Below the pieces are notes generated by a model, which was given only the letters and a program-made list of their open reading frames with translations, made no database searches and was not told where the DNA came from. DNA of 15,383 nucleotides from Eubacteriaceae bacterium UBA4266 (lineage in GTDB: Bacteria; Bacillota; Clostridia; Eubacteriales; Eubacteriaceae): positions 1-15,383 of the forward strand of contig DGWE01000002.1 in assembly GCA_002396065.1 (NCBI GenBank). Direction: 5' to 3'. The number at the start of each line of letters is the position of its first letter. Position 1 is the stretch's first letter. Shown here in pieces: positions 3,701 to 15,061 of this stretch. A program made the position numbers and the translations under genes.

Positions 3701-4499
3701 CAGAGGCCCGCACAAGGGACGCAGAACCCGCTCGCGGGGGGAAAGCCCCCAGCCGGAAGCCTCGGGCTTTGTGATCGTCGGGAAGAATCCGGTGCGCGAG
3801 GCCCTCAGGGAGGACCGGCAGATCGACCGCCTGTACGTGATGAAGGACAACCGGGACCACGTCCTCGGGGACATCGTGGCCCAGGCGAAAAAGCGCGGCG
3901 TCATCGTCCACTCGGTGGAAAAGCAGAAGCTCAACCAGATCGCCCGGGACGCGGGCTTTGACAACACCAATCACCAGGGGATCGCCGCGATGATGGCGCC
4001 CTTTGATTTTCAGGCGTTAGAGGACGTGCTGGACCCGGAACAGGACCAGCTGATCGTGATCCTCGACCACATCCTCGACCCCCACAATTTCGGGGCCATT
4101 GTCCGCTCGGCCAATTTGTGCGGGGCGTCGGCGGTGATCTTCCCGGACCGACGCTCGGCGTCGGTGACGGCGGTGTCGATGAAGGCGTCGGCCGGGGCGA
4201 TGAACGCGACGGCGATGGTGAAGGTGGCCAACCTCTCCCAGGCCATCGAGACCCTGAAAGACGCCGGGTTCTGGATCGCGGCCGCCGATATGGACGGCGA
4301 ACCTTACTACAATCTGGACTGGACCGGGAAGATGGCCATCGTCATCGGAAGCGAAGGCGCCGGGGTCAGCCCCAATGTGCGCAAGCACTGTGACCTGATC
4401 GCGTCGATCCCCAATTACGGGACCATCGATTCCTTCAACGCCTCGGTCGCGGCGGGGGTGCTGCTCTGCGAGGCGGCCCGTCAGCGCCATGCCGGCTGA
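3690..4499 (+). CDS. rlmB: TrmH/SpoU-family 23S rRNA 2'-O-methyltransferase RlmB
   Basis: SPOUT methyltransferase acting on ribose 2'-OH of RNA, most likely 23S rRNA guanosine in the peptidyl-transferase region. The product is 269 residues. A basic tail (1-24) precedes the substrate-binding domain starting at GFVIVGKNPVREAL (26-39). The trefoil-knot catalytic domain has motif 1 DPHNFGAIVRSA (130-141), motif 2 IVIGSEGAG (217-225) and motif 3 IPNYGTIDSFNASVAAG (240-256). Motif 3 has S-F-N where S-L-N is common. A good SD (GGAGAAAGGG, 3671-3680) lies inside the preceding gene, overlapped by 11 bases. Its partner yacP also overlaps by 11 bases; this pair is conserved in Firmicutes. A tRNA-modifying role is possible but less likely. 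Confidence 0.92.
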   Translation: MKNNRGPHKGRRTRSRGESPQPEASGFVIVGKNPVREALREDRQIDRLYVMKDNRDHVLGDIVAQAKKRGVIVHSVEKQKLNQIARDAGFDNTNHQGIAAMMAPFDFQALEDVLDPEQDQLIVILDHILDPHNFGAIVRSANLCGASAVIFPDRRSASVTAVSMKASAGAMNATAMVKVANLSQAIETLKDAGFWIAAADMDGEPYYNLDWTGKMAIVIGSEGAGVSPNVRKHCDLIASIPNYGTIDSFNASVAAGVLLCEAARQRHAG

Positions 4500-5055
4500 T
4501 AAGCCGACGCTGATCGTCGACGGCTACAACGTGATCCACGAGCGGGCCCACGAGGCGAACCGCCCGGTGGGCGATTTGGAGAGCGAGCGGGCGCGGCTGA
4601 TCGACGAGCTGGCGGATTACAGCGGCTACCGCGGGGTGAACACGGTGGTGGTGTTCGACGCCTACAACCGCAAGGATTTCGAGGAGCGGGAGGTGACGGT
4701 CAGCGGGATCCGCGTCGTGTTCACGAAGTTCGGGGAGACGGCGGACACCTACATCGAGGCGCTGGTCTACGCCCTGTTGGGCAGCCACCGGGAGGCGCGC
4801 CGGGCCAATCGGCAGCGGCGGGTCGAGGTGGTCTCGTCGGACAGCGCGGTGCAGCAGCTGATCCTCGGGGGCGGCGCGACGCGGATGTCCTCCCGGGAGC
4901 TGCTCCTCGACTTTAAGGCGGTGAAGAAGCGGGCGGCCAAGGCGAAGCTCCACAAGACCCAGGCGGCTCCGGCCCACAACCGCCTGTCGGAATCCATGAA
5001 CGCCGACGTGGCGGAGATCCTCGACGGGATGCGCAAGTCGGACGTGGACGAATAA
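4489..5055 (+). CDS. yacP: NYN/PIN-like endoribonuclease, YacP (Rae1) family
   Basis: The 188-residue product matches the YacP family; the Bacillus subtilis member Rae1 is a ribosome-associated endonuclease cutting mRNA in the A site. The PIN-like fold shows IVDGYNVIH (9-17), VVVFDAYN (53-60), ETADTYIE (83-90) and SSDSAVQ (116-122). Acidic residues D11, D57, D87 and D118 sit where the metal site is expected. The C terminus is basic and probably binds RNA or ribosome. Its ATG overlaps rlmB by 11 bases and no strong SD is adjacent, so translation is probably coupled. Placement behind two rRNA methyltransferases and a synthetase fits a translation-related operon. Confidence 0.88.
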   Translation: MPADKPTLIVDGYNVIHERAHEANRPVGDLESERARLIDELADYSGYRGVNTVVVFDAYNRKDFEEREVTVSGIRVVFTKFGETADTYIEALVYALLGSHREARRANRQRRVEVVSSDSAVQQLILGGGATRMSSRELLLDFKAVKKRAAKAKLHKTQAAPAHNRLSESMNADVAEILDGMRKSDVDE

Positions 5056-5062
5056 TATACTT

Positions 5063-5093
5063 GAGCTCTGAAGGGTTTCGGAGCTCTTTTTTT
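5063..5093 (+). terminator. strong intrinsic terminator of the hisS-yacP cluster
   Basis: GAGCTCTGAA-GGGT-TTCGGAGCTC gives a 10-bp stem with one T-G pair and a 4-base loop, followed by TTTTTTT. It starts 8 bases after the yacP stop. Confidence 0.93.
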
Positions 5094-5184
5094 CGTGAAA
5101 TTTTGGCATATTTCCGGGGATGAAAATGTTTTCTTGTTCTAAATGTGAAATTATGTAAAAGTGAGAAATAATTTTAAAGGGGCG

Positions 5185-5213
5185 TAGACAAGGGCATTTG
5201 ACCGGTGTATAAT
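5185..5213 (+). promoter_or_regulatory. promoter P1 of the transketolase operon
   Basis: TAGACA (5185-5190), 17-base spacer, TATAAT (5208-5213). Near-consensus sigma-A promoter about 80 bases before the tkt start. Confidence 0.75.
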
Positions 5214-5224
5214 ACATGTAAAAG

Positions 5225-5252
5225 TTGACAGGGTTCTAATTGCTGAAATAAT
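5225..5252 (+). promoter_or_regulatory. promoter P2 of the transketolase operon
   Basis: TTGACA (5225-5230), 16-base spacer, AATAAT (5247-5252). A second promoter about 39 bases downstream of P1, giving a short leader to the tkt start. Confidence 0.6.
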
Positions 5253-5291
5253 GTAAAAGAACCGAAAAATGATTTGAATAAGGAGAATTTT

Positions 5292-6095
5292 ATGGAAGAT
5301 CTGAAAGCCATTGCTAAGGAAATCCGCCGTGATATCGTCAAAAGCATTGGAAAAGCGGCTTCTGGCCACCCAGGCGGCTCGCTGTCCGCAGTCGAAATGT
5401 TGACCCTCTTGTATTTTGAAAAGATGAATGTGGATCCGAAGAATCCGACCAAGGCAGACCGCGACCGCTTCGTCCTGTCCAAGGGGCACGCTGCACCGGC
5501 GCTTTACGCGACGCTGGCGAACCGCGGCTTTTTCCCGAAGGAAGAGCTCGACCATCTGCGTCAGGTCGGCGCGATGCTCCAGGGGCATCCTTCGATGCAC
5601 ACCCCGGGCGTCGATATGGCGACCGGCTCCCTCGGCCAAGGATTTTCCACGGCTGTGGGCATGGCCCTCGGCGCAAAGCACCAGGGTGCGCCTTACCACG
5701 TGTACACGATCCTCGGGGACGGCGAAATCGAAGAAGGCATCGTCTGGGAAGCGGCGATGGCGGCTTCCAATTACGGCCTGTCCAATCTGACGGCCTTCGT
5801 CGACAACAACAACCTGCAGATCGACGGCCAGATTTCGGACGTCATGAATCCGTACCCGATTGACGAAAAATTCGCGGCCTTCGGCTGGAACGTGATTGAC
5901 GTCGCCGACGGCAACGATTTCGATCAGCTGCGCGACGCGTTGGCTCAGGCCGAAGCCTGCACCGACAAGCCGTCGGTCCTCGTCTGCAAGACGGTCAAGG
6001 GCAAAGGCGTTTCCTTCATGGAAAACGAAGTGGGCTGGCACGGCAAGGGACCGAATCCGGAACAGGTCGAAGAGGCCCTGAAGGATTTGGCATAA
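5292..6095 (+). CDS. tkt: transketolase, N-terminal (pyrimidine/diphosphate-binding) subunit
   Basis: First half of a split transketolase, which moves two-carbon units between sugar phosphates in the pentose-phosphate pathway using thiamine diphosphate. 267 residues. Seen are SGHPGGSLS (24-32), DRFVLSKGHAAPAL (58-71), GSLGQGFSTAVG (112-123) and the ThDP/Mg motif GDGEIEEG (142-149) running to DNNN (171-174). Full-length transketolase is about 660 residues; this is the Clostridia-style two-gene version, and the other half follows 27 bases later. I chose ATG 5292, with AAGGAG 7 bases upstream, over an in-frame TTG at 5274 that would begin inside the leader. Confidence 0.95.
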   Translation: MEDLKAIAKEIRRDIVKSIGKAASGHPGGSLSAVEMLTLLYFEKMNVDPKNPTKADRDRFVLSKGHAAPALYATLANRGFFPKEELDHLRQVGAMLQGHPSMHTPGVDMATGSLGQGFSTAVGMALGAKHQGAPYHVYTILGDGEIEEGIVWEAAMAASNYGLSNLTAFVDNNNLQIDGQISDVMNPYPIDEKFAAFGWNVIDVADGNDFDQLRDALAQAEACTDKPSVLVCKTVKGKGVSFMENEVGWHGKGPNPEQVEEALKDLA

Positions 6096-6122
6096 TCGGG
6101 TTCCAACTGAGGAGTATATAGA

Positions 6123-7058
6123 ATGGAAAAAATCGCCACTAGAGAAGCTTACGGTAAATATCTTGTCGAACTGGGCAAGCAAAATCCGAAAATCGTCGTG
6201 TTTGACGGGGACTTATCCGGCGCGACGAAGACGTCTTATTTCAGAGAAGCTTTCCCGGACCGCCATTTCAACGCCGGGATCGCCGAAGCGGATTTGATGG
6301 GCATGGCCGCCGGGATTTCCACGACGGGCCTGATCCCCTTCGCGTCCACCTTCGCCATTTTCGGGGCGGGGCGCGCCTTTGAAATTATCCGCAACAGCAT
6401 CTGCTATTCCAACTTGAACGTGAATATCTGCTGCACCCACGCGGGGCTGTCGGTCGGGGAAGACGGCGGCTCTCACCAGTCGATCGAAGACATCGCGCTG
6501 ATGCGTGTCCTCCCGAATATGCACGTGTTTGTGCCGGCGGACGCGGTGGAAACCCGCCGCATGCTCGACGCGGCGCTGACCATCGACGGGCCGGTTTACA
6601 TCCGCCTGTGCCGTCTGGCGACCAACGTCGTCCTGCCTGAAGATTACGAATTTGTCCCGGGCAAGGCGGTGGAACTGAAGTCGGGCAGCGACGTGACGAT
6701 CATGGCCATCGGCCTGATGGTCGAACGGGCGCTGGAAGCGGCGGAAGCCCTGAAGGCGGAAGGCATCGACGCCCGCGTGCTGAACATGGGCTCGATCAAG
6801 CCGATCGACAAGGCGGCCATCGAAGCGGCGGCCAAGGAAACCGGCGCGATTGTCACCGCGGAAGAACACTCGATCATCGGCGGCCTGGCTGGCGCGGTCT
6901 GCGAAACCCTCGCGGAAACGACGCCGTGCCCGGTGGAAAAGGTCGGCGTGAACGACGTCTTCGGCCAGTCCGGCAAGGCGCAGGAAGTTCTCGAAGCCTA
7001 CGGCCTGACGGCAGATCACATCGTCAAGGCCGCCAAGGACGCCATCGCCCGCAAATAG
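6123..7058 (+). CDS. tkt: transketolase, C-terminal subunit
   Basis: Second half of the split transketolase, 311 residues. It carries the pyrimidine-binding domain with the catalytic glutamate in GIAEADLMGMAAG (52-64; E55, which activates the ThDP aminopyrimidine). THAGLSVGEDGGSHQS (105-120) is a family hallmark, and the transketolase C-terminal domain starts near 190. AGGAG lies about 8 bases before the ATG. It must pair with the upstream N subunit to form the active site. The related DXS enzyme is excluded by the split layout and the neighbouring transaldolase. Confidence 0.95.
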   Translation: MEKIATREAYGKYLVELGKQNPKIVVFDGDLSGATKTSYFREAFPDRHFNAGIAEADLMGMAAGISTTGLIPFASTFAIFGAGRAFEIIRNSICYSNLNVNICCTHAGLSVGEDGGSHQSIEDIALMRVLPNMHVFVPADAVETRRMLDAALTIDGPVYIRLCRLATNVVLPEDYEFVPGKAVELKSGSDVTIMAIGLMVERALEAAEALKAEGIDARVLNMGSIKPIDKAAIEAAAKETGAIVTAEEHSIIGGLAGAVCETLAETTPCPVEKVGVNDVFGQSGKAQEVLEAYGLTADHIVKAAKDAIARK

Positions 7059-7063
7059 TTAAA

Positions 7064-7094
7064 CCCCCGGCGGCTGCCCGTGGGGGCGGCTGCC
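7064..7094 (+). other. intercistronic GC hairpin and 10-bp direct repeat
   Basis: CCCCC (7064-7068) can pair with GGGGG (7082-7086), with an inner GGC/GCC. The 10-mer GGCGGCTGCC occurs at 7069-7078 and again at 7085-7094. It lies between the transketolase C gene and transaldolase, with no clean T-run directly after the stem, so it may stabilise or partly attenuate the mRNA. Confidence 0.4.
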
Positions 7095-7124
7095 AGTTTT
7101 CAATTTAAAGAGGAGTGTAAACAT

Positions 7125-7781
7125 ATGAAATTTTTTCTCGATACCGCGAATGTAGATGACATCCGCCGCGCCAACGACATGGGCGTGATTCAGGGCGTCA
7201 CGACCAACCCGTCGCTGATCGCGAAGGAAGGCCGCGACTTCAACGAAGTCATCAAGGAAATCACGTCGATCGTCGACGGGCCGATTTCCGGCGAAGTCAA
7301 GGCGACGACTACCGACGCCGAAGGCATGATCGCTGAAGGGCGCGAAATCGCCAAAATCCACCCGAATATGGTCGTCAAGATCCCGATGACCGAAGAAGGC
7401 CTGAAGGCGACGAAGGTGCTCTCTTCTGAAGGCATCAAGTGCAACGTGACCCTGATCTTCTCACCGGCTCAGGCGATCCTCGCGGCGCTGGCCGGCGCGG
7501 CTTACGTCTCACCGTTCCTCGGCCGCCTCGACGACATCGCAACCCCTGGGATCGAATTGGTCCAGACCATCGCCGAAGTCTTCGAAGTCCAGGGCATCGA
7601 AACGGAAATCATCGCGGCGTCGATCCGCAACCCGATCCACGTGGTCGACTGCGCGGCAGCCGGCGCGGACATCTGCACGATCCCGATGAAGGTTGTCGAA
7701 CAGATGACCCATCATCCGCTGACCGATATCGGCATTAAGAATTTCCAGCGGGATTACATCGCGGTTTTCGGCGATAAGTAA
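7125..7781 (+). CDS. tal: transaldolase, short (TalC/FSA-like) subfamily
   Basis: Schiff-base aldolase moving a dihydroxyacetone unit between sugar phosphates, completing the non-oxidative pentose-phosphate shunt with the transketolase genes upstream. 218 residues, the usual size of the short subfamily. Seen are [11 protein letters not shown] (3-13), [13 protein letters not shown] (24-36), the catalytic lysine in VVKIPMT (K85), and [18 protein letters not shown] has glutamate (E57) where E. coli fructose-6-phosphate aldolase has glutamine, favouring transaldolase over FSA. The start is the ATG at 7125 with AGGAG 9 bases upstream; an upstream in-frame GTG at 7080 would begin inside the hairpin region. 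Confidence 0.93.
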
Positions 7782-7815
7782 GGGGAAGCCTTCTCATCTT
7801 GCTTCAGCATTCGGG

Positions 7816-7842
7816 TCGGCCAGCCGCCGGCTCGATTTTTTT
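7816..7842 (+). terminator. intrinsic terminator after the pentose-phosphate operon
   Basis: TCGGCC-AGCCGCC-GGC(T)CGA makes a 6-bp stem with one bulged T, followed by a T7 run. Confidence 0.6.
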
Positions 7843-7852
7843 AAAATTTCCC

Positions 7853-7881
7853 TTGACTTTACAGAAGATATTCGGTAAGAT
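7853..7881 (+). promoter_or_regulatory. promoter of the tRNA pair
   Basis: TTGACT (7853-7858), 17-base spacer, TAAGAT (7876-7881), 19 bases before tRNA-Tyr. Confidence 0.7.
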
Positions 7882-7900
7882 ATAGAAGTTCTCAAGTGAT

Positions 7901-7985
7901 GGGGAAATGCCCGAGTGGCTAAAGGGGGCGGACTGTAAATCCGTTGACTTAGTCTACGATGGTTCGAATCCATCTTTCCCCACCA
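7901..7985 (+). tRNA. tRNA-Tyr (anticodon GTA)
   Basis: Class II tRNA with a long variable arm. The acceptor GGGGAAA (7901-7907) pairs with TTTCCCC (7975-7981). The anticodon loop CTGTAAA has GTA at 7935-7937. The variable arm contains GAC-TTA-GTC, the T arm is GATGG-TTCGAAT-CCATC, and discriminator A is followed by an encoded CCA. Confidence 0.97.
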
Positions 7986-7988
7986 TCT

Positions 7989-8064
7989 GCTATTGTAGCT
8001 CAGTAGGTAGAGCACCACCTCGGTAAGGTGGGGGTCACCGGTTCAAATCCGGTCAATAGCTCCA
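7989..8064 (+). tRNA. tRNA-Thr (anticodon GGT) with C at position 33
   Basis: All four stems close perfectly: acceptor GCTATTG/CAATAGC, D stem GCTC/GAGC, anticodon stem CCACC/GGTGG and T stem ACCGG/CCGGT, with encoded CCA. The anticodon loop reads TCGGTAA, so the anticodon is GGT (8022-8024) and the base before it (8021) is C where U33 is nearly invariant. G1-C72 and C2-G71 fit threonine identity. Confidence 0.95.
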
Positions 8065-8074
8065 TTGATGATTC

Positions 8075-8103
8075 AAGCCCGAAGCGATGCTTCGGGTTTT
8101 TTT
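8075..8103 (+). terminator. intrinsic terminator of the tRNA operon
   Basis: CCCGAAGC-GAT-GCTTCGGG, an 8-bp perfect stem extended by wobble and A-T pairs, followed by a T7 run, 11 bases after tRNA-Thr. The stretch from here to 8165 holds nothing I recognise. Confidence 0.93.
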
Positions 8104-8165
8104 GTTGCTTATTTTCAGGATTTGGGCATAAATAAAAATGGCAAGAAGTGCGAAAACTGTCGTAC

Positions 8166-8860
8166 TTAATACCTTTCGACGGAAACGCGATTCGTTCCTT
8201 CACTTAAAATTTCTGTCCAATGATCGGGGAAGCCAATGTCTTTCAATCTGATTGATGTTTTATAATGATCGATCAAGTCGTACAGGGGTAAGAAAAATTT
8301 GTAGTTCCATTGATCGGGCTCTGGATAAAGTTGTTTGAGCATATACAGTTGTGAAAACAGTTTGTGGTTTAAATGAATCCCTTTGTCTCGACGTCGTAGA
8401 GCGGGAACGGAAGGGAAAGACCAATAATACAATCTGGCGTAGTGGGCGCATCGGTTTCTTAAATCCGATAAGCCTTTCAGCCAGCCTGATAACGTTTTGT
8501 GAATTGATCAAAATCAAATTTTTCGTTAAAGTTGTCACGCTGTAAATAACCTTCTGCGCCATATTGATGTGAAAAGTAATAGACGATCTGCGTCCGCATG
8601 AATATCTCTATTTTTTCAATGTTCTTGAAGATGAGATTCCGTATTTCGCAATCGAATTTGTAAATGTCTCTGACCGCATCAAAGGAAATAGCTGCATCGT
8701 CGCTGGAAAATGGCAGTAAGTATCCACTCAATCGGTAATAATTAACTTGAGATAAAAACTTTTTACATTGTGCGTCATCGAGAATGGAAACGCCATGCTT
8801 TTTGAGAATTTCGACTTGCTCGTCAAAAGTTGTTGGTGATTTTAAAATGATTTCTGACAT
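8166..8860 (-). pseudogene. Abi_2-family (AbiD/AbiF-like) HEPN abortive-infection gene, internally deleted and frameshifted
   Basis: The N-terminal part (8860-8477, 127 codons) reads like Abi_2 proteins: TTFDEQVEILKKHGV, VNYYRLSGYLLPF, DIYKFDCEIRNLIF and KIEIFMRTQIVYY. It then hits a stop at 8477. The C-terminal part continues in another frame from about 8488 to 8166: WLKGLSDLRNRCAHYARLY, KLFSQLYMLKQLYP and IGFPDHWTEIL. RNRCAH is the family's R-x4-H HEPN ribonuclease motif. Intact members are about 300 residues; the two pieces total about 230 and the usual central block is missing. An internal deletion of roughly 70-80 codons with a frame change is therefore inferred. Start and control look intact: ATG 8860, SD GGAGGG 7 bases away, and a strong promoter. 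In the family, activation kills or stalls phage-infected cells by RNA cleavage; this copy should be inactive. Confidence 0.85.
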
Positions 8861-8867
8861 AAATTGG

Positions 8868-8906
8868 CCCTCCGGCTTTGCACTTCATTTTGAGAGGTGT
8901 GGAGGG
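8868..8906 (-). promoter_or_regulatory. abi leader hairpin that buries the Shine-Dalgarno
   Basis: On the minus strand CCCTCC (8906-8901) pairs with GGAGGG (8873-8868), which is the SD of the abi gene. An inner CAC/GTG stem (8899-8897 with 8883-8881) and a loop starting CTCTCA complete it. A homologous hairpin with compensatory changes lies at 9053-9088. Confidence 0.6.
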
Positions 8907-8919
8907 ATCTGTCACCATT

Positions 8920-8948
8920 AGAATACGCCCTTTGCGGTCTATTGTCAA
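8920..8948 (-). promoter_or_regulatory. promoter of the abi gene
   Basis: On the minus strand, TTGACA (8948-8943), 17-base spacer, TATTCT (8925-8920). The stem of the leader hairpin begins 13 bases after the -10. Confidence 0.75.
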
Positions 8949-9043
8949 TTTCTATTACATCCTTTAAGACCATTTACGCGAGGTCAGGAAAATGGTGATT
9001 TGTTGATTGATATTAATAATTTGATCAGAAAAGTTTTCTCTAT

Positions 9044-9095
9044 AAAAAATGTGCCCCCATTGGACACGTCTATGAGAGGTGTGGGGGCTCCTGTT
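9044..9095 (-). ncRNA. candidate small structured RNA related to the abi leader
   Basis: A predicted transcript of about 52 nt. GCCCCC (9088-9083) pairs with GGGGGC (9058-9053), and an inner ACAC/GTGT stem (9082-9079 with 9067-9064) closes an 11-base loop CTCTCATAGAC. ACA and a T6 run (9049-9044) follow, as in an intrinsic terminator. It has its own consensus promoter at 9102-9130 and no coding sequence behind it. Promoter spacing, the ACACCTCTCA motif and stem architecture match the abi leader at 8868-8906. It could be an sRNA partner of the Abi protein (RNA motifs beside abiF-type genes have been reported, from memory), or an orphaned leader whose gene was lost. The stretch 8949-9043 otherwise shows only AT-rich DNA with no credible ORF. 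Confidence 0.55.
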
Positions 9096-9101
9096 GTCGT
9101 T

Positions 9102-9130
9102 AGTATAGATGAGATTTCTCGTGCTGTCAA
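9102..9130 (-). promoter_or_regulatory. promoter of the small RNA candidate
   Basis: On the minus strand, TTGACA (9130-9125), 17-base spacer, TATACT (9107-9102). The -35 begins one base after the hicB stop codon. The spacer contains the palindrome GAGAAATCTC (9120-9111). Confidence 0.75.
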
Positions 9131-9131
9131 C

Positions 9132-9542
9132 TCAAGCGAGATGGAGTTTTTCGGTCAAGGCGTCCTGCAGCACCTGCGAGAAATTGACGTTGTTCTGTCT
9201 GGCGATGTTGTCCATCCACGCGGGAATGGACAGGGTCTTTTTCACGGCGCGGTTAGAGGTACGCTTGCGGTATTCGAGGGTATCGGCGAAGATCAAGGTC
9301 GCGAAGGCGTGATCGTCGTGAATCGACGCGTTGACGGCCTGCATCGACGAGGGTTTGGCGAAGGGCTCTTTGTTGTCCTCGTATTCGCACAACATCAAGG
9401 GTAAGACGTCGCTGGCGTTGAGCAGGGCGTCGTCGATGTCCTTGCCGCTGGTGTAGACGTGGGGCAGATCCGGAAATGCGACGGAAACGCCGCTGCCGTC
9501 CGGCTCGACGGTAAAGATCGCGGGATAAGTGTATTTAGCCAT
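9132..9542 (-). CDS. hicB: HicB-family antitoxin with RHH DNA-binding domain
   Basis: Antitoxin of a type II HicAB module; it blocks HicA and usually represses the operon. 136 residues. The N-terminal degraded RNase-H-like HicB fold shows YPAIFTVEPDGSGVSVAFPDLP (6-27, seen as two adjoining motifs), then SGKDIDDALLNASDVL. The C-terminal ribbon-helix-helix is near VKKTLSIPAWMDNIAR (100-115) through FSQVLQDAL. The SD AGGAGGT lies about 6 bases before the ATG, stronger than that of hicA, as expected for antitoxin excess. It starts 33 bases after the hicA stop in the same operon. No terminator is obvious directly after it; the small RNA promoter abuts its stop codon. Confidence 0.92.
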   Translation of the reverse strand: MAKYTYPAIFTVEPDGSGVSVAFPDLPHVYTSGKDIDDALLNASDVLPLMLCEYEDNKEPFAKPSSMQAVNASIHDDHAFATLIFADTLEYRKRTSNRAVKKTLSIPAWMDNIARQNNVNFSQVLQDALTEKLHLA

Positions 9543-9575
9543 TTTTTACCTCCTATAAAGTGAAGATGTGGGGCG

Positions 9576-9761
9576 TTATTTCAGCCCGGCATCTTTGAGA
9601 ATTCGGTTTAACGTGCCAGTTGCTGCTTCTTCGTGATCGTGACGGGAAAGGGCGAATGTGACGCCCGTTTTAGGGTTGATCCAGATTTCATGCCGGCCGC
9701 CTTCGCGGTAAAATTGGCATCCCGCCTTCCGCAGCTTCCTTTTGAGTTCGCCATATTTCAT
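9576..9761 (-). CDS. hicA: HicA-family mRNA interferase toxin
   Basis: Small double-stranded-RNA-binding-fold toxin that cleaves mRNA. 61 residues, the normal size. Key features are the N-terminal helix KYGELKRKLRKAGC, the catalytic-histidine motif GGRHEIWINPKTG (H24), and a conserved tail of the RHxxEEAxGTLxxILKDAG type (40-59). All conserved parts are present, so it looks functional. I chose the second ATG (9761-9759), with AAGGAG 6 bases upstream, because the first ATG (9767) touches the SD. Order hicA-hicB is the common one. The local DNA is less GC-rich than the housekeeping genes, in line with acquisition. Confidence 0.92.
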   Translation of the reverse strand: MKYGELKRKLRKAGCQFYREGGRHEIWINPKTGVTFALSRHDHEEAATGTLNRILKDAGLK

Positions 9762-9784
9762 TGTCATCTCCTTACTTTTAGTCC

Positions 9785-9813
9785 ATTTTATTACGTGATA
9801 ATACGTATGTCAA
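9785..9813 (-). promoter_or_regulatory. promoter of hicAB
   Basis: On the minus strand, TTGACA (9813-9808), 17-base spacer, TAAAAT (9790-9785), 23 bases before the hicA ATG. Confidence 0.8.
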
Positions 9814-9840
9814 GAAGAGTGATAAATAAAAATACGTATT
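9792..9840. repeat. TACGTA operator-like repeats at the hicAB promoter
   Basis: TACGT (9792-9796) and ACGTA (9803-9807) form an inverted repeat inside the promoter spacer. The 9-mer AATACGTAT occurs at 9800-9808 and again at 9831-9839, where AATACGTATT is a perfect palindrome. Centres are 31 bases apart, about three helical turns. Likely HicB binding sites. Confidence 0.55.
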
Positions 9841-9872
9841 CTAAGCGAATCTTCAGGATTTTCAGCTAAACG

Positions 9873-9900
9873 CAAAAAAGGCGGCGTTACACCGCCGCCT
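9873..9900 (-). terminator. intrinsic terminator overlapping the ImmA-like stop codon
   Basis: On the minus strand AGGCGGCG-GTGTAA-CGCCGCCT forms a perfect 8-bp stem followed by a T-run. The stop codon TAA lies in the loop, so the final codons encode half of the stem. Confidence 0.85.
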
Positions 9901-10129
9901 CGTGCCGTTCCCGTTCAATCCGGTCGACGGAGCCCGCGGCCCCGTAGTCCAAATCCCCGCGTCTAAAGTGGTTAAGCTCGTGCTCCAGGCACGCCCGCTT
10001 CATCTCGAGGGACAGGGCCTCGTTGATGAAAATCGCCACGTCGCCCTCGTCGTTCTTTGAAATCAAGCTGTGAATCCGCGGCGGCAGCGCCACCACGTGC
10101 ACCGGGATATCTTCTTCCCAAATCGTCAT
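9887..10129 (-). CDS. short ImmA/IrrE-like zinc metalloprotease
   Basis: 80-residue protein with HELNH (50-54), the zinc-peptidase HExxH motif, inside LEHELNHFRRGDLD. This matches the small ImmA/IrrE-like proteins found next to phage repressors; ImmA cleaves the element's repressor to allow induction. It is shorter than full ImmA (about 120-170). It lies downstream of the XRE gene in one minus-strand operon and ends in a terminator. The start is the ATG at 10129-10127, with AAAGGA 10 bases upstream; an ATG at 10138 is too near that SD. The gap to the XRE gene (10130-10235) shows no gene. The protease call is good, cleavage of the neighbouring repressor is inference. Confidence 0.72.
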   Translation of the reverse strand: MTIWEEDIPVHVVALPPRIHSLISKNDEGDVAIFINEALSLEMKRACLEHELNHFRRGDLDYGAAGSVDRIERERHEAAV

Positions 10130-10235
10130 GCATCTCATGTCCTTTCGTGAAAAAATTGATCTATATTCAAGGGCAGGGGCGGATCGTGGGACATCCTTTG
10201 GCCCGTATTTGACTTGATTAAAATTCTACTTGATA

Positions 10236-10634
10236 TTATTTCTTTTTGTTGCGTTCGGTCAGCCGGCGGATCATTTCGGCCGCCATCTGAATGTCCTCGG
10301 GGGCCGCGCCGCGGCTCGCGTCGAAGAGCATCCGCAGGTTGTCGTCCTCGTAGACCTGCTGGGCGATCTTCCGGGTGCCCGGGTCGATGTAGTACACGTC
10401 GTCGTCGGGTTCGTTGTTTTCCGGATCGGCGAAATCGTGGCTGATCAGGTCGTTGAGCGTGACGCCGAAGATGTCGGCCAGGCCCTCGAGGGTGCGCACG
10501 TTGGGCTCCGAGTCGCCGGATTCCCATTTTTGCACCGTCGTGAAGGAGCGGTAGCCGAGCATATCGGCGATATCGTCCTGGGACAGGCCGCATTCGTGGC
10601 GCAGAAACCGAATGTTTTTGGATAAGGTGGACAT
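10236..10634 (-). CDS. XRE-family HTH repressor (phage cI-like)
   Basis: 132-residue DNA-binding regulator. The N-terminal HTH_3 domain covers about 5-60: LSKNIRFLRHECGLSQDDIA, then VQKWESGDSEPN and LEGLADIFGVTLNDL. The acidic linker is followed by a C-terminal segment (LRMLFDASRGAAPEDIQMA and RRLTERNKKK) common in Firmicute phage repressors, where it serves dimerisation. It is divergent from the phage replication genes and followed by the ImmA-like gene, the classic lysogeny-switch arrangement. The start is uncertain: ATG 10634 is preferred, but a GTG nine bases upstream is possible and both have weak SDs. Confidence 0.9.
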   Translation of the reverse strand: MSTLSKNIRFLRHECGLSQDDIADMLGYRSFTTVQKWESGDSEPNVRTLEGLADIFGVTLNDLISHDFADPENNEPDDDVYYIDPGTRKIAQQVYEDDNLRMLFDASRGAAPEDIQMAAEMIRRLTERNKKK

Positions 10635-10678
10635 GGTCACCACTCACTTTCTAGGTTCTTATTTTTTGAGTTGCACTT

Positions 10679-10707
10679 ATTTTACACTATTTCAGATCGC
10701 CTTTCAA
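10679..10707 (-). promoter_or_regulatory. promoter of the XRE-ImmA operon
   Basis: On the minus strand, TTGAAA (10707-10702), 17-base spacer, TAAAAT (10684-10679), 44 bases before the ATG. Confidence 0.75.
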
Positions 10708-10715
10708 GCCAAATT

Positions 10716-10741
10716 TTGAAATTTTTTCGAAAAAACTTCAA
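10716..10741. promoter_or_regulatory. 26-bp near-perfect palindrome, candidate repressor operator
   Basis: TTGAA (10716-10720), one base, TTTTTTCGAAAAAA (10722-10735), one base, TTCAA (10737-10741). Only one symmetric pair is mismatched. It sits between the divergent -35 boxes (10702-10707 and 10750-10755), where an XRE dimer could control both. Confidence 0.6.
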
Positions 10742-10749
10742 GAAAAGCC

Positions 10750-10778
10750 TTGACACATGAATTGTATTCTCGTATAAT
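10750..10778 (+). promoter_or_regulatory. perfect-consensus promoter of the phage replication module
   Basis: TTGACA (10750-10755), 17-base spacer, TATAAT (10773-10778). A leader of about 140 bases follows. It carries the palindrome GCAAGT-CCA-ACTTGC (10821-10835), a G7/C3 element with a T8 tract (10842-10863), and CTTGA/TCAAG (10873-10889). Confidence 0.88.
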
Positions 10779-10925
10779 GAACGATGTTAAACTGCATTTG
10801 CCTGAGACATTGAATATGCTGCAAGTCCAACTTGCTGGAAAGGGGGGGCGCCCGATTTTTTTTGGCTGACGGCTTGAATGGTTATCAAGTCATAATAGGA
10901 AATATACATGATAAGGAGGCATTTT

Positions 10926-11927
10926 TTGGCAAATAAACGCGGCAGGCCCCGGAAAATGGGGCTGGATTGGTTTCCCTTCGACGTGACCCTGCTCACCGAC
11001 CGCAAGCTCAGGCGGCCCCGGGCGGAGTTCGGCAGCGCGGCGGTGCTGACCTACATCGCGCTGCTCTCGCTGATTTACCGCGACAAGGGGTATTATCTGG
11101 CGTACCAAGGCGACGGCCGGGAGGACGTGGCCCTGGACGTGGCGGATCTCATCGGCGGGGCCCTGGCGCCGGACGCCCTGGCCCAGGCGGATCAGATTCA
11201 GAAAATCATCGGCGCGCTGGTGGATCGGGGGCTGTTCGACCGGGCCTGCTTCGAGGCCGGGGTGCTGACCAGCCGCCGCATCCAGCGGACGTATTACAAC
11301 GCGGTCGCGGAGCGGACTAGCGTTCAAATCAATTGGGACGTTTGGATTTTGAGTGAAGAGGAGATGAGCGGGATTCAAAATAACAATCCGATTTTGAATT
11401 TATATCGTAAAGAAAAGAAAATATATGATAAACCGATTTTTTCTCCGGAAAAACCTATTTTTCCGGCGGAAAAATCGAATTTTCCGACGGGAAATTCGTA
11501 TAGGATAGGAGATGAGAAGATAAGAGAGGAGAGCATAGAAGAGGAGACTCTCTCCCCGGCTGACGCCGGGGCCTGCCGCGCTGACGCGCGGGGAGGGGAT
11601 CTCGCGCTCTACCGGGATTACTGGAATCACCACGTGGCCGAGCCTGCGGGGCTGACGAAGGTGCGGGAGGTGAGCCGTTGGAGCGAAAAGCGGCGGCAGA
11701 CGCTGACCCAGCGCGTCCGCGAGGAGGGCGCGCAGCACGTGCTCGACGTGTTCGATCGGGTGGCGCGCTCCAATTACCTCTCCGGGAAAATCGCCGACTG
11801 GCGGGCGGACTTCGACTGGGTCATCGCCGACGGCAATTTTCAGAAGATCGCCGAAGGGCGCTTCGACAACTACAAGGCGAAGGACGGCGGCAGTTTTTAC
11901 GACAAATTAGCGCGGGGTGACCTATGA
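10926..11927 (+). CDS. phage replisome organiser (Lin1244/Lin1753-like, DUF4373 type)
   Basis: 333-residue protein of phage replication modules. The N-terminal domain MGLDWFPFDVTLLTDRKL (11-28) and LTYIALLSLIYRDKGYYL (41-58) match the Lin1244/Lin1753-type N terminus. A variable middle (150-215) holds a 7-residue repeat (KPIFSPE, KPIFPAE, KSNFPTG). The C-terminal DnaD-like part has YRDYWN (229-234), SNYLSGKIADWRADFDWVI (282-300) and NFQKIAEGRFDNY. Such proteins bind origin DNA and recruit helicase loader. I chose the TTG at 10926, with AAGGAGG 6 bases upstream. An in-frame ATG at 10908 with AGGA 7 bases away is a serious alternative. It overlaps the next gene by 4 bases (ATGA). Confidence 0.8.
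   Translation: MANKRGRPRKMGLDWFPFDVTLLTDRKLRRPRAEFGSAAVLTYIALLSLIYRDKGYYLAYQGDGREDVALDVADLIGGALAPDALAQADQIQKIIGALVDRGLFDRACFEAGVLTSRRIQRTYYNAVAERTSVQINWDVWILSEEEMSGIQNNNPILNLYRKEKKIYDKPIFSPEKPIFPAEKSNFPTGNSYRIGDEKIREESIEEETLSPADAGACRADARGGDLALYRDYWNHHVAEPAGLTKVREVSRWSEKRRQTLTQRVREEGAQHVLDVFDRVARSNYLSGKIADWRADFDWVIADGNFQKIAEGRFDNYKAKDGGSFYDKLARGDL
11373..11399. repeat. 9-bp inverted repeat next to the origin-like dyads
   Basis: ATTCAAAAT (11373-11381) and ATTTTGAAT (11391-11399), perfect arms with a 9-base spacer. An AT-rich stretch (11400-11435) follows directly and leads into the dyads. Confidence 0.55.
11436..11496. repeat. three 19-bp dyads at 21-bp period, candidate replication origin
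   Basis: Dyads start at 11436, 11457 and 11478. The middle one (ATTTTTCCG-G-CGGAAAAAT) is a perfect palindrome. The third (AATTTTCCG-A-CGGGAAATT) has one mismatched pair. The first keeps the CGGAAAAA arm with a weaker left arm. The 21-bp period is two helical turns and gives the 7-residue protein repeat. Origins inside the initiator gene are known in lambdoid and Gram-positive phages. Confidence 0.65.
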
Positions 11928-12439
11928 ATTTAAAAGAAACCGGCCGCATCATGAAGATGATCAAGGCGGCTTACCCGAATTTTGACAAGAACGGCAGCGC
12001 CAAGGACATCGCGGCGCTGTGGGCGTGGCGCTTCAAGGAGACGGATTTCCGCACCGTCCTCGAGGCCGTGGGCGCCTACATCGACGGGGATCACGCCTTC
12101 GCGCCGACGGTGGGGCAGATCAAGGCGGTGATCCGCGCTGCCCAGCCGAAGCTCTCCGCCGCCGACGGCTGGGCTGAGATCGCCCGCGCCCTCAAGGATT
12201 CCCTGGCCAACGCCGAGGCCGAGTTTAATAAGCTCTCGCCGCCGGTGCGCGCCTACGTGAAAAGCCCCCAGACCCTCAGGAGCCTGGCCGGCTGCGACAT
12301 GGCCAGCCGGTTCTTCACCGACTACCAGGCCCAGTTTTTCGCGCGCTTCGCCGCCGCCCAGGCCGACGAGACGGAGGACTTCGCCGCCCTTAATTCCCCG
12401 GGAAATAATCGGGAGAGGCTTGAGAGCGGGGAGGATTAA
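11924..12439 (+). CDS. phage helicase loader-like protein (SPP1 G39P type)
   Basis: 171-residue protein. The N-terminal helical domain matches the loader/inhibitor family that delivers replicative helicase to the origin: KETGRIMKMIKAAYPNF (4-20), AALWAWRFKETDFRTVLEAV (30-49) and FAPTVGQIKAVIRAA (59-73). Tyrosine-proline near 17 and PTxxQIK are the usual anchors. The C terminus is alanine-rich and less conserved. Its ATG overlaps the stop of the replisome organiser (ATGA), so the two are coupled. The expected DnaB-type helicase gene is missing downstream, so the host helicase would have to be the partner, or the module is a relic. Confidence 0.7.
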   Translation: MNLKETGRIMKMIKAAYPNFDKNGSAKDIAALWAWRFKETDFRTVLEAVGAYIDGDHAFAPTVGQIKAVIRAAQPKLSAADGWAEIARALKDSLANAEAEFNKLSPPVRAYVKSPQTLRSLAGCDMASRFFTDYQAQFFARFAAAQADETEDFAALNSPGNNRERLESGED

Positions 12440-12453
12440 TCCGCAGTGAATAA

Positions 12454-12482
12454 TTGATTTGCGGCGTGAATTCCGTTATAAT
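12454..12482 (+). promoter_or_regulatory. promoter of the membrane protein gene
   Basis: TTGATT (12454-12459), 17-base spacer, TATAAT (12477-12482), starting 15 bases after the loader stop. The leader is about 60 bases. Confidence 0.75.
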
Positions 12483-12548
12483 GAGACAAATTTAAGCGTG
12501 ATTAACGAATTGATACAGAATGAACACATTATGATAGAAAGGAACGCC

Positions 12549-13319
12549 ATGAAACACAACAAAATCCTGATGCACGTCGCCATCGCCCTGTTCGCCCTGT
12601 CGGCGGCGATCTACGCGGCTCAGATTCTGATCTTCCGCGACCCGCGCACCACCGCCTTCTACATCTTTCAGGACTTCGCCTTCCTGCCGGCGTCCATCGC
12701 CATCGCCACCGTCGCCGTCGGGGCCATCCTCGACGAGCACGACCGCCAGGAGGCCCTGGCCTCGACCCGGATGCTGCGGAGCCAGTTCTTCACCAGCGTC
12801 GGCGCCCCGATGCTCAAGGCAATCACGTACTGCGCCAAATGCGGGACAAATATGGGCCAGCTCACGGCCATCGACGGGCCCGTCGACACGATCCGCCAGC
12901 GCCGCAAGCTCCAGCGGGAAATCGAAGCCCGCCAGGAGCAGATCGAGGGCGTCGACCTGCGGGTCAACCTGACCAAATCCGCCTACGACGGCATCCGGGA
13001 CATCCTGATGGCAAACCGGCTGGACCTGCTCATCCTCGGCTCGACCCACAATTTGAACGAGGCCGAGCGCTTCTCCGAGATGCTCTGGGGGATCTTCCAC
13101 CTGATGGACGAGTACCGGCTCCGGGGCGACTGGGAACAGCTCAGTCCCGAGGATGTCGCCCACCTCGAGGCGGATTTCGCCGAGGTGCTCAGGCTGATGC
13201 TCGCCAACAGCGTCGCCAACAATTTCTACCTGAAGACCACCTACCCGAATTTCTACGGCGCCGCCCAGGAGAAACTCCTGGCCCACCGCGCCGAAAATCG
13301 GGAGGACGACGGGGAATAA
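12549..13319 (+). CDS. two-helix membrane protein of an uncharacterised family
   Basis: 256 residues. Two N-terminal membrane segments (about 6-29 and 37-61) are followed by a mostly helical, probably cytoplasmic domain. It has a lone CAKC pair (95-98) and a basic-acidic heptad-like stretch (115-134) that may coil. The tail EMLWGIFHLMDEYRLR (177-192), DVAHLEADF (202-210) and YLKTTYPNF (227-235) resembles, from memory, a family of bacterial and archaeal membrane proteins with a LLWxxFHL/HLxxD/YPxL pattern and no known function. The start is ATG 12549 with AAAGGA 5 bases upstream; the frame is open to 12459 but that part lies in the promoter and leader. It has its own promoter and terminator, so it is an independent unit. 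I cannot assign a function. Confidence 0.75.
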   Translation: MKHNKILMHVAIALFALSAAIYAAQILIFRDPRTTAFYIFQDFAFLPASIAIATVAVGAILDEHDRQEALASTRMLRSQFFTSVGAPMLKAITYCAKCGTNMGQLTAIDGPVDTIRQRRKLQREIEARQEQIEGVDLRVNLTKSAYDGIRDILMANRLDLLILGSTHNLNEAERFSEMLWGIFHLMDEYRLRGDWEQLSPEDVAHLEADFAEVLRLMLANSVANNFYLKTTYPNFYGAAQEKLLAHRAENREDDGE

Positions 13320-13356
13320 GCATTAAAAGAATTAAAATGATTGGACTGATTTGAAT

Positions 13357-13384
13357 AACCTGCGGTTCGCCCGTGGGTTTTTTT
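13357..13384 (+). terminator. intrinsic terminator of the membrane protein gene
   Basis: AACCTGCGG-TTCGC-CCGTGGGTT, a 9-bp stem with two wobble pairs, then a T7 run. Confidence 0.88.
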
Positions 13385-13420
13385 GTTGGGAAAAATGGGA
13401 CGCGGCTATAAGCTTTCGGC

Positions 13421-13464
13421 ATAACCGATTCTAGCAAATCCGTATAACCTATTTTACAAATAGG
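13421..13464. promoter_or_regulatory. direct repeat and palindrome upstream of the CHR transporter promoter
   Basis: ATAACC-ATT-TA-CAAAT-like units start at 13421 and 13444 (23 bases apart). The second overlaps a perfect palindrome CCTATTT-TAC-AAATAGG (13448-13464) that ends 2 bases before the -35. It is placed like an activator or repressor site. Confidence 0.45.
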
Positions 13465-13466
13465 AA

Positions 13467-13495
13467 TTGACAGCATTGTCCTTCGGCGTTAAAAT
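13467..13495 (+). promoter_or_regulatory. promoter of the CHR transporter operon
   Basis: TTGACA (13467-13472), 17-base spacer, TAAAAT (13490-13495). Confidence 0.8.
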
Positions 13496-13550
13496 GGGGA
13501 CATAATCATACTAAACATACAGACACACTATGTATTCAAAGGAGTTCACC

Positions 13551-15011
13551 ATGAAAAATCGCACCCAGTCACCATCGGCTCACACCGCCCGCCAAGCAGG
13601 AAAAGGGTCCTTTTTCATGTGTATGCTCAAGATCGGCATCATCGGCTTCGGCGGCGGCACGGCGCTGATCCCGGTGATCGAGGACGCCGTCACCCGGGAA
13701 CACCCCTTCGTCTCCAAAGAAGACTACGACCGGGACGTGGTCGCCGCGGCCATCACCCCGGGGGCCCTGCCGGTGGAAATCGCGGCGGGCCTGGGCAAAT
13801 CCGTCGCCGGCCCCGGGGGGATGCTCCTCTCGGCGCTTTTAATGGCGCTGCCCGGCTGCCTGCTGACTTTAGTGATTCTGGCCGTGCTCTCCGGCGTCAA
13901 CAAAGCGGTGCTGACCCTGACCGACTGCCTGTCCATCGGGATCACCGCCTTCATCTTAACCCTATTAATCGCCTACGTCGTCCGGACCTACCGGGAAGGC
14001 GGGGGGGACCGCCGCACCGCCGCCGTCATCGCCGGGGTCTTCGCCCTGACCTGCGGGAAGAACCTGTTCACGATATTTGGGATCAAGGGCGTCCCGGCCG
14101 TGTCCCTCGACACGCTGTCGGTGCTCGGGCTGGCCTTCTTCGTGATCTTTTTCACAAAAGGCAAATTCGATTTAAAGAAGGGATTGGCCGTCGCCGGCGT
14201 CGCCGCCGCCTTTCTATTCGGCAAAGGGGCCCTGCGCCTCACCGCCATCGGGGCGATGGCCGCCCTCGGCGGCTGGGGGCTCGCCGCCGACATCCGGGGG
14301 GCCAAGGGGTCCATAGCGAAACCCGGCCAGTTCGGCCGCAAATGGGCGCTGGAAATGGGCATCTGGGGCAGCCTGCTCGCCGTGGCCGCGGCGCTGACCT
14401 TCATCGTCACCGGCCGCGCGCCGATCTTCGTCCTCCGGGGGCTGCTCTCGTCGCTGATTTCCTTCGGCGGCGGCGACGCCTACCTGTCGGTGGCCGAGGG
14501 GATGTTCGTCCAGACCGGGACCCTCTCCGCCGGCCATTTCTACGGCAATTTGATCCCGGTGGCCAACCTGCTGCCCGGGTCGATCCTCTGCAAAGTCCTC
14601 GCCGGCACCGGCTACTACGTCGGCTGGGGCGTGCGCCACTCCCTCGTGGACGCGGGGCTCCTCTGGCTCGCCGGGTTTCTCGTCGCGGTGGCCGGCAGCG
14701 GCATGACCTTCGGCACCGTCCGCCTGATTTACGACGCCCTGGAAAAGCTGGACACCTTCGCCTGCCTGTCCCGGTGGATCAGACCCATCGTCGCCGGGCT
14801 TTTACTCAACATCTGCTTGTCACTCATCAGCCAGAATCTGACCACCGGCGTCACTCTGGGCCTCTCCGCCGGCGCCGCCGCGGGCATCACCGCCGCGATC
14901 CTCGCCGTCAACCTGGTGCTGCTCTACAGCCGCCGGGCCAAATCCGGCGCGATGATCGCCTTCTCGGCCCTGGCCAGCGTCCTCACCGCCGGCTCCCTGG
15001 TCTTATTATAA
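13551..15011 (+). CDS. chrA: CHR-superfamily (chromate-type) oxyanion transporter, two fused CHR domains
   Basis: 486-residue polytopic membrane protein with roughly ten hydrophobic segments. The first CHR domain begins after residue 20 with MLKIGIIGFGGGTALIPVIE, then EDYDRDVVAAAITPGALPVE. The second half has LRGLLSSLISFGGGDAYLSV followed by NLIPVANLLPGSILCKVLAG, which is the same FGGG and PG architecture. Known members export chromate or move sulfate-like anions. Proline-glycine motifs are PGA and PGS rather than PGP, so the substrate may differ. The start is ATG 13551, with AAAGGAG 6 bases upstream; an ATG at 13530 is in the leader. An AprA-like flavoprotein follows 50 bases later without a terminator, so sulfate-type uptake is a reasonable inference. 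Confidence 0.85.
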   Translation: MKNRTQSPSAHTARQAGKGSFFMCMLKIGIIGFGGGTALIPVIEDAVTREHPFVSKEDYDRDVVAAAITPGALPVEIAAGLGKSVAGPGGMLLSALLMALPGCLLTLVILAVLSGVNKAVLTLTDCLSIGITAFILTLLIAYVVRTYREGGGDRRTAAVIAGVFALTCGKNLFTIFGIKGVPAVSLDTLSVLGLAFFVIFFTKGKFDLKKGLAVAGVAAAFLFGKGALRLTAIGAMAALGGWGLAADIRGAKGSIAKPGQFGRKWALEMGIWGSLLAVAAALTFIVTGRAPIFVLRGLLSSLISFGGGDAYLSVAEGMFVQTGTLSAGHFYGNLIPVANLLPGSILCKVLAGTGYYVGWGVRHSLVDAGLLWLAGFLVAVAGSGMTFGTVRLIYDALEKLDTFACLSRWIRPIVAGLLLNICLSLISQNLTTGVTLGLSAGAAAGITAAILAVNLVLLYSRRAKSGAMIAFSALASVLTAGSLVLL

Positions 15012-15061
15012 GAATGAGAAACCTGCATAGCTTTTATGCGTTTGAATAGAAAGGAAAATCG

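What the first reader, a model, noticed from the sequence alone, without database searches (positions are those of the whole stretch)
8868..9130. Two homologous promoter-hairpin units: the abi leader and a stand-alone small RNA candidate
Both units lie on the minus strand and share TTGACA, a 17-base spacer, a TAT(A/T)CT -10, then exactly 13 bases to a 6-bp GC stem. Directly inside it are ACACCTCTCA and an inner CAC/GTG stem. The outer stems are GCCCCC/GGGGGC (9083-9088 with 9053-9058) and CCCTCC/GGAGGG (8901-8906 with 8868-8873). Two positions change in a compensatory way (C-G to U-A, G-C to C-G), which is direct evidence of a conserved RNA fold. The upstream unit ends in U6 with no gene behind it, so it looks like an RNA gene paired with an Abi_2 HEPN protein. 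It may be an RNA antitoxin, a sensor or a decoy for the abi leader.
Basis: partly seen in the sequence, partly recalled or inferred. Interest (0 to 1): 0.82.

Follow-up and report, generated by a model that had tools for sequence, protein, structure and literature searches.

The report
Split abiF-type RNA antitoxin locus
Two small RNA hairpins beside a broken phage-defence toxin gene belong to the known abiF kind of RNA, probably one as a free antidote RNA and one as a lid on the toxin gene's start signal; similar free-standing hairpins turn up in many phages that lack the toxin.

Summary
Both are abiF-type RNAs (Rfam RF03085 class, though below its gathering score). A covariance model from 23 relatives, without the window, returns only these two places in the whole 1.31-Mb genome. 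The spacings and the fold, with covariation, recur upstream of Abi_2 genes elsewhere. So this is a known kind: RNA antitoxins of Abi_2/AbiF HEPN toxins (PMC12373285).

Two things are unusual. The antitoxin-like unit (9053-9088) stands alone with its own promoter and a T-run. The other unit is the abi leader, and its 3' arm GGAGGG is also abi's only visible Shine-Dalgarno. Of 35 abiF hairpins followed by an Abi start, only this one and one Lachnospiraceae locus (L088) have a strong SD in the stem. The abi gene is broken (about 65 residues missing, frame changed), so here the module is a relic or a solo RNA, unless the assembly errs.

Unexpected lead: orphan abiF RNAs occur in many phage contigs; 98 of 100 records tested, eight named ones among them, lack Abi_2. 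They are candidate RNA decoys against AbiF.

The parts
9102..9130 (-). promoter of the stand-alone unit: TTGACA (9130-9125), 17 nt, TATACT (9107-9102)
   Evidence: 11 of 12; -10 to stem 13 nt, the spacing found in 30 of 46 abiF units
9053..9088 (-). stand-alone abiF-type RNA hairpin (GCCCCC / A / CAC ... GTG / UCCAAU / GGGGGC), candidate antitoxin RNA
   Evidence: R2 22.4 bits, one of two hits in the genome; R1 12.0 bits; fold -17.5 kcal/mol
9044..9049 (-). T6 run 3 nt after the stem; terminator-like. An alternative stem 9067-9051 that excludes the abiF fold was also found
   Evidence: sequence; scan
8920..8948 (-). promoter of the abi leader: TTGACA (8948-8943), 17 nt, TATTCT (8925-8920)
   Evidence: 10 of 12
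8868..8906 (-). abi leader: abiF-type RNA hairpin
   Evidence: RF03085 24.0 bits, only match in own genome at E <= 10 (gathering score 37 not reached); R2 22.6 bits
8868..8873 (-). GGAGGG: 3' arm of the leader stem and at the same time the Shine-Dalgarno, 7 nt before the ATG at 8860
   Evidence: sequence; predicted unpaired probability of GGAGG 0.00; same layout in L088
8477..8860 (-). abi gene, first piece (127 aa), Abi_2 family, profile positions 1-92
   Evidence: PF07751 E 2.1e-21; PADLOC AbiD E 2.9e-38; PDB 8vz6_A E 1.2e-12
8166..8507 (-). abi gene, second piece in another frame, profile positions 158-183, keeps the HEPN motif RNRCAH; about 65 residues between the pieces are missing

Best explanation
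The locus is a split variant of an AbiF-type (type III-like) RNA-protein toxin-antitoxin module carried on a small prophage-like element. The upstream unit makes a short, self-terminating abiF RNA, the antitoxin that binds and silences the Abi_2 HEPN ribonuclease. The second unit is the 5' end of the abi mRNA: the same RNA fold, in which the 3' arm doubles as the Shine-Dalgarno, so that the folded leader hides the start signal and free toxin that binds its own leader would switch off its own translation. Shown here: homology of both units, promoters, placement before an Abi_2 gene, the SD inside the stem, and that abi is broken in this assembly. Inferred from published relatives: RNA binding by the Abi protein and antitoxin activity. 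Inferred from anatomy only: translational autorepression by the leader. In this genome the toxin looks dead, so what may still act is the stand-alone RNA.
For: Both units and nothing else in the genome match model R2; covariation in 23 relatives: 98.6% of cells paired, 6 of 9 pairs with changes on both sides, 0 of 500 shuffles reach the covariation score. Promoter geometry shared: 13 nt in 30 of 46 and 17 nt in 31 of 46 units, against 56 of 1000 random positions at 13 nt. 35 of 48 hairpins collected lie within 60 nt of an Abi ORF start. The abi piece matches PF07751, PADLOC AbiD and the solved AbiF-RNA complex 8vz6. SD in the stem in the window and in L088, both 7 nt before ATG, predicted fully paired. 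Published: abiF motifs of RCd22 needed for neutralisation, binding to AbiF (PMC12373285); translational control of abiD1 with an RBS-sequestering stem-loop (PMC2661086).
Against: The abi gene is broken, so no working toxin is shown. RF03085 misses the upstream unit and scores the leader below its gathering score. Only 3 of the 20 nearest-relative Abi_2 loci give an RNA hit with any of the models used, so abiF RNAs are not universal partners. Leader folding energy is unremarkable (22 of 200 shuffles as good). The SD-in-stem layout rests on two loci. No transcript or binding data.
Confidence: 0.6

Rival explanations
1. Two abiF systems met at one site: the upstream unit is the orphan antitoxin of a lost abi gene and the leader belongs to the second, now broken, gene. 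No division of labour; both are relics.
For: Orphan abiF RNAs are common: 12 of 28 hits in the class survey have no Abi ORF start within 60 nt. The upstream unit is closer to L055 (28 of 34 positions) than to the leader (25 of 34), and the leader is closer to L087 and L088 (27, 26). The abi gene is broken.
Against: The upstream unit's nearest relatives L054, L055 and L083 serve Abi proteins that are also among the nearest relatives of the window's Abi (39-43% identity), which fits one shared partner. Both promoters and both folds are still intact, which argues against long decay.
Confidence: 0.25
2. The stand-alone unit is a phage-derived decoy or anti-addiction RNA that silences AbiF toxins of other elements, independent of the neighbouring abi gene.
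For: The unit lies in a prophage-like stretch (repressor, replication initiation and helicase-loader families). Stand-alone abiF RNAs with T-runs are common in phage contigs without Abi_2 (98 of 100 records), and ToxI mimicry by phage PhiTE is a published precedent (PMC3475682, abstract).
Against: It sits directly upstream of an Abi_2 gene, the normal antitoxin position. No test of activity in trans.
Confidence: 0.12
3. Chance: two GC-rich hairpins with promoter-like sequences.
For: Leader folding z only -1.3; R1 puts a chance site at 11.8 bits, close to the upstream unit's 12.0.
Against: Only two hits in the genome, both here, both in the right orientation before the only Abi_2 gene.
Confidence: 0.03

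Closest known systems
AbiF-RCd22 of Clostridioides difficile (PMC12373285; abstract, sections 7, 9, 11 and part 1 of 13 read)
   Same: Abi_2 HEPN protein, abiF-motif hairpins upstream, sigma-A type promoter, terminator; two motifs per locus; the window's abi piece matches the phiC2 AbiF at 45.2%.
   Different: RCd22 holds both motifs in one RNA from one promoter, co-transcribed with abiF, with a separate terminator hairpin and an RBS outside the motif. Here each motif has its own promoter and the second one contains the SD. The window's abi is broken.
abiF RNA, Rfam RF03085
   Same: Outer 6-bp stem, single A, inner 3-bp stem, loop beginning CUCUYA, one-sided bulge; next to an Abi_2 gene.
   Different: Leader 24.0 bits, below the gathering score of 37; upstream unit not reported.
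PbAbiF-RNA complex, PDB 8vz6 (seen as a PDB hit and through PMC12373285 and PMC12737573; the original paper was not seen)
   Same: The abi piece matches the chain (E 1.2e-12).
   Different: Structure of another family branch; RNA contacts not compared here.
AbiD1 of Lactococcus lactis (PMC2661086; abstract and passages read)
   Same: Same protein group; a short leader with a terminator and an RBS-hiding stem-loop; translation is the control step.
   Different: There the RBS stem lies downstream of the terminator and is AU-rich; in the window the abiF-type stem itself holds the SD.
Pseudo-ToxI of phage PhiTE (PMC3475682; abstract read)
   Same: A phage RNA that mimics a type III antitoxin, the precedent for the phage orphans noted here.
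   Different: Different toxin family and RNA fold; activity shown there, not here.

Membership tests
abiF RNA (RF03085) | consensus fold: 6-bp outer stem, unpaired A, 3-bp inner stem, CUCUYA loop | tested here: met
   both units, all 9 pairs standard
abiF RNA (RF03085) | score at or above Rfam's gathering score of 37 bits | tested here: not met
   leader 24.0 bits; upstream unit not reported. Hence filed as abiF-like rather than as a curated member
abiF RNA (RF03085) | significant match to a model of the class built without the window | tested here: met
   R2 22.6 and 22.4 bits, sole genome hits, E 0.050 and 0.060; R2 contains L088, found by a pattern modelled on the leader
abiF RNA (RF03085) | lies upstream of an Abi_2 gene, same strand | tested here: met
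type III toxin-antitoxin (AbiF kind) | intact toxin gene | tested here: not met
   two pieces in different frames, about 65 residues missing; assembly error not excluded
type III toxin-antitoxin (AbiF kind) | RNA binds and neutralises the protein | not testable with these tools
   needs binding and growth assays
Abi_2 / AbiD-AbiF protein family | PF07751 over the curated cut-off and R-x4-H HEPN motif | tested here: met
   first piece 77.5 bits over cut-off 25.6; RNRCAH in the second piece
SD-sequestering (translational control) leader | SD inside a stable stem at the right distance from the start codon | tested here: met
   GGAGG paired, 7 nt between stem and ATG; effect on translation not tested

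The most novel reading that the evidence does not exclude
abiF RNAs have split into two jobs: leaders that act as toxin-sensing lids on the abi start signal, and stand-alone RNAs that act in trans. The window shows both side by side. The stand-alone form has spread into phages as an RNA counter-defence that soaks up AbiF-type HEPN toxins, which would make it a widespread natural RNA anti-defence.
Probability: 0.35. Interest if true: 0.8.

Novelty: new variant of a known kind. Interest (0 to 1): 0.55.

Why it matters
AbiF toxins and their RNAs are described as the root of Cas13 (PMC12373285, PMC12165695, PMC12737573, passages). How the RNA keeps the toxin off, and how the toxin gene is kept low, is known in detail for few systems. 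A locus where the antitoxin RNA and the leader are separate units, and where the leader's stem is the Shine-Dalgarno, gives a clean test of whether AbiF-type proteins regulate their own translation. The orphan abiF RNAs in phages, if they neutralise AbiF, would be a common RNA-based counter-defence hidden in unannotated stretches of phage genomes.

Tried and rejected
Close relatives by exact peptide patterns: none in genome contigs or viral contigs. Recent tandem duplication as the origin of the two units: not favoured, since each unit is closer to another locus than to its partner (short sequences, weak evidence). SD-in-stem as a general feature of abiF leaders: rejected. In one search, 23 of 35 have the SD outside, 6 show none to the script, and 6 were flagged inside; 4 of those 6 (L036, L048, L042, L058) are three-letter GGA matches made because the script took too early a start codon, which I discount by eye, leaving the window and L088. 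An exact-pattern scan for this layout over genome contigs gave 2 stretches, L088 (Abi ORF, E 3.7e-100) and L089 (no Abi hit); a looser one over viral contigs gave 22, none with an Abi hit. In one search the SD rows for L054 and L055 picked the wrong GGAG and are not used; of the other rows, L003 (0.01), L040 (0.24), L037 (0.43) and L044 (0.49) also have poorly exposed SDs in that crude fold and L031 has 0.88, so hidden SDs as such are not special to the window; the SD inside the abiF stem is. BLAST of a short motif from L092 against phages gave only weak hits, better ones with two other motif queries. Rfam hits RF02900, RF00316, RF00681 and RF00271 near the units are below gathering scores and taken as chance.

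Not done: structure prediction, the search for homologous proteins, phylogeny of the RNA, any expression data. The original AbiF-Cas13 paper (Zilberzwige-Tal et al.) and the paper that first described the abiF motif were not available; what is said of them comes from other papers. That the split layout or phage decoys are unreported rests on searches of an open-access library only (one search was aimed at the first abiF paper and at AbiD1); S-CREM1's abiF RNA was already reported (PMC9964418, passages).

Full report
What is there. On the minus strand two units follow the stop codon of a HicB-like gene. Each has TTGACA, a 17-nt spacer, TAT(A/T)CT, 13 nt and a GC-rich hairpin. The upstream hairpin (9053-9088) is GCCCCC-A-CAC-CUCUCAUAGAC-GUG-UCCAAU-GGGGGC followed by ACA and six T. 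The second hairpin (8868-8906) is CCCUCC-A-CAC-CUCUCAAAAUGAA-GUG-CAAAGCC-GGAGGG followed by CCAATTT and the ATG of an abi gene at 8860. All coordinates and both compensatory changes of the finding are right.

Identity. With permissive settings Rfam's abiF RNA (RF03085) matches the leader at 24.0 bits with every pair standard; in the whole 1.31-Mb genome this is its only match at E <= 10, E 0.037. The gathering score is 37, so this is a sub-threshold hit, and the upstream unit is not reported. I therefore built models from relatives. RF03085 hits 23 of 391 genomes drawn from the class (28 places, E <= 0.01). From 17 of these I built R1. Without any window sequence it ranks the two units first and second of 19 hits in the window, at 16.0 and 12.0 bits with the third at 11.8. 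A second model, R2, from 23 sequences including plasmid, phage and the L088 relatives, gives 22.6 and 22.4 bits against 9.7 for the next site, and in the whole genome returns only these two. R2 includes L088, which I had found with a pattern modelled on the leader, so R2 is not wholly independent of the window.

Covariation. In A4 (23 sequences, none from the window) 98.6% of cells are paired, 6 of 9 pairs have changes on both sides, the covariation score is 0.440 against 0.170 in shuffles, and 0 of 500 shuffles reach it; further pair types is the weakest measure, reached by 5 of 500. Sliding the partners by 1 to 3 columns drops pairing to 24-43%. A2 (17 sequences) agrees.

Promoter geometry. 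In 46 units the best sigma-70-like promoter leaves exactly 13 nt before the stem in 30 and has a 17-nt spacer in 31; of 1000 random positions 56 give 13 nt.

Partner. The gene behind the leader is Abi_2: first piece PF07751 E 2.1e-21, PADLOC AbiD E 2.9e-38, PDB 8vz6 chain A E 1.2e-12. Of 48 hairpins collected, 35 have an Abi ORF start within 60 nt downstream. Not every Abi_2 gene has such an RNA: of the 20 nearest-relative Abi_2 loci searched, RF03085 finds 2 and R1 and R2 find 3. Some of the others show different leader hairpins by eye.

The gene is broken. Piece 1 aligns to residues 5-124 of the intact 288-aa L088 protein and piece 2 to 190-287, in another frame and directly adjoining in the DNA, so about 65 residues are missing. 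The HEPN motif RNRCAH is kept in piece 2. It is the only Abi_2 locus found in this 66%-complete assembly. An assembly error cannot be excluded.

What is unusual. First, the two motifs are separate transcription units by sequence. In C. difficile RCd22 two abiF motifs lie in one RNA from one promoter (PMC12373285, section 7). In the 73 loci searched with R2 only L036, L057 and L058 hold a second motif, 1.1 kb upstream of the first in L036 and about 1 kb downstream of it in the other two. Second, the leader's 3' arm GGAGGG is the SD, 7 nt before the ATG. Among 35 abiF hairpins followed by an Abi start, a strong SD in the stem occurs in the window and in L088, a Lachnospiraceae MAG; in 23 it is outside. 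In L088 the spacing is also 7 nt, and both SDs are predicted fully paired. A scan of genome contigs for this exact layout gave only L088 and one unrelated stretch. The layout is rare.

How it most likely works. From the published relatives (PMC12373285, abstract and sections 7, 9, 11, 13 part 1) the abiF hairpins bind the Abi protein and neutralise it, in cis by early termination and in trans by binding. The stand-alone window unit has what a trans-acting antitoxin needs: promoter, fold and T-run. The leader has the fold that the protein should bind, with the SD inside it, so bound or merely folded leader would block translation. Translational control has a precedent in the same protein group: abiD1 has an RBS-hiding stem-loop, and phage Orf1 raises its translation (PMC2661086, abstract and passages). 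The autorepression step is inference from anatomy.

Origin. The units share 25 of 34 positions across the -10 and first half of the hairpin. The upstream unit shares 28 with L055, the leader 27 with L087 and 26 with L055 and with L088. A recent duplication is therefore not favoured, though the stretches are short. The abi proteins of L054 and L055 and of the phage contig L083, whose RNAs resemble the upstream unit, are among the window protein's nearest relatives.

Setting. Upstream lie HicB and HicA, a short M78-like ORF below the Pfam cut-off, an HTH repressor and, on the other strand, replication-initiation and helicase-loader families known from phages. Two tRNA genes lie just beyond the abi pieces. 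In two genomes of the genus (L243, L245) the flanks 1-8106 (to 8068 in L245) and 13421-15382 align, while of the content between only 11799-12278 does; a third (L244) aligns on the left flank only. So this is a variable, prophage-like site.

A lead beyond the window. With the bulge left free (3-10 nt), 104 of 120 have a perfect 6-bp outer stem; 3 of the 104 have an Abi ORF in the locus held (own HMM of 30 proteins), and 31 of the other 101 have a tRNA within about 600 nt. At fixed geometry, 79 of 120 pair fully, and the 81 distinct ones pair at 0.815 of positions against 0.652 in shuffles (maximum 0.691 of 1000), with 22 distinct fully paired stems. PF07751 was searched in the whole records of 92 of the 120 and in 8 named phage records: 98 of 100 have none; many are fragments. 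Named phages above the Rfam gathering score are Acinetobacter phage Acj61 (58.0 bits), Synechococcus phage S-CREM1 (52.2), Aeromonas phage PZL-Ah8 (50.1) and Salicola phage CGphi29 (50.1). Bacillus phages Grass and SBSphiJ5 match R1 at 45.1 bits but were not reported by Rfam at E <= 0.5. S-CREM1's was reported before, as a conserved sRNA gene (PMC9964418, passages). A phage RNA that mimics a type III antitoxin is known for ToxI (PMC3475682, abstract). Decoys against AbiF are the obvious reading; nothing here tests it.

Verdict. Real, known kind, new variant.

Noticed in passing
L092, L120-L237 (IMG/VR loci); L246, L248, L249, L250 (named phages): Orphan abiF RNAs in phages without Abi_2, often beside tRNA genes: candidate RNA decoys against AbiF toxins.
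   Followed up: partly
window 8166-8860: abi gene broken: two frames, about 65 residues missing, HEPN motif kept.
   Followed up: yes
L057 2412-2447, L058 2413-2450, L036 351-386: Second abiF-type motifs about 1 kb downstream (L057, L058; 15.2 and 17.5 bits) or 1.1 kb upstream (L036; 31.8 bits) of the first motif.
   Followed up: no
L101 5578-5613 and 5628-5663: Two abiF-type motifs in tandem in a viral contig, the second ending in GGAGGG shortly before an ATG of a non-Abi ORF.
   Followed up: no
L074, L075, L076, L082, L004, L006, L014, L020: Other hairpins stand before Abi_2 genes; some look like divergent abiF variants (CCCAC..GGCCUCUG..GUGGG) that the models used did not find.
   Followed up: no
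window 9067-9051, minus strand: A terminator-like stem that shares bases with the 3' half of the upstream abiF fold, so the two exclude each other: possible switch or ordinary terminator.
   Followed up: no
window 9132-9767, minus strand: HicB-like antitoxin and HicA toxin pair directly upstream of the RNA units.
   Followed up: no
window 8107-13420; L243, L245: Variable site in the genus: flanks shared, content differs, a replication-module stretch (11799-12278) shared.
   Followed up: partly
L028, L041, L045, L047, L049, L051, L052 and others: 12 of 28 class-level abiF RNA hits have no Abi ORF start within 60 nt: orphan antitoxin RNAs or anti-addiction RNAs in bacterial genomes.
   Followed up: no
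window 11430-11494: 21-bp tandem repeat, 3.1 copies, inside the replication-initiation ORF.
   Followed up: no
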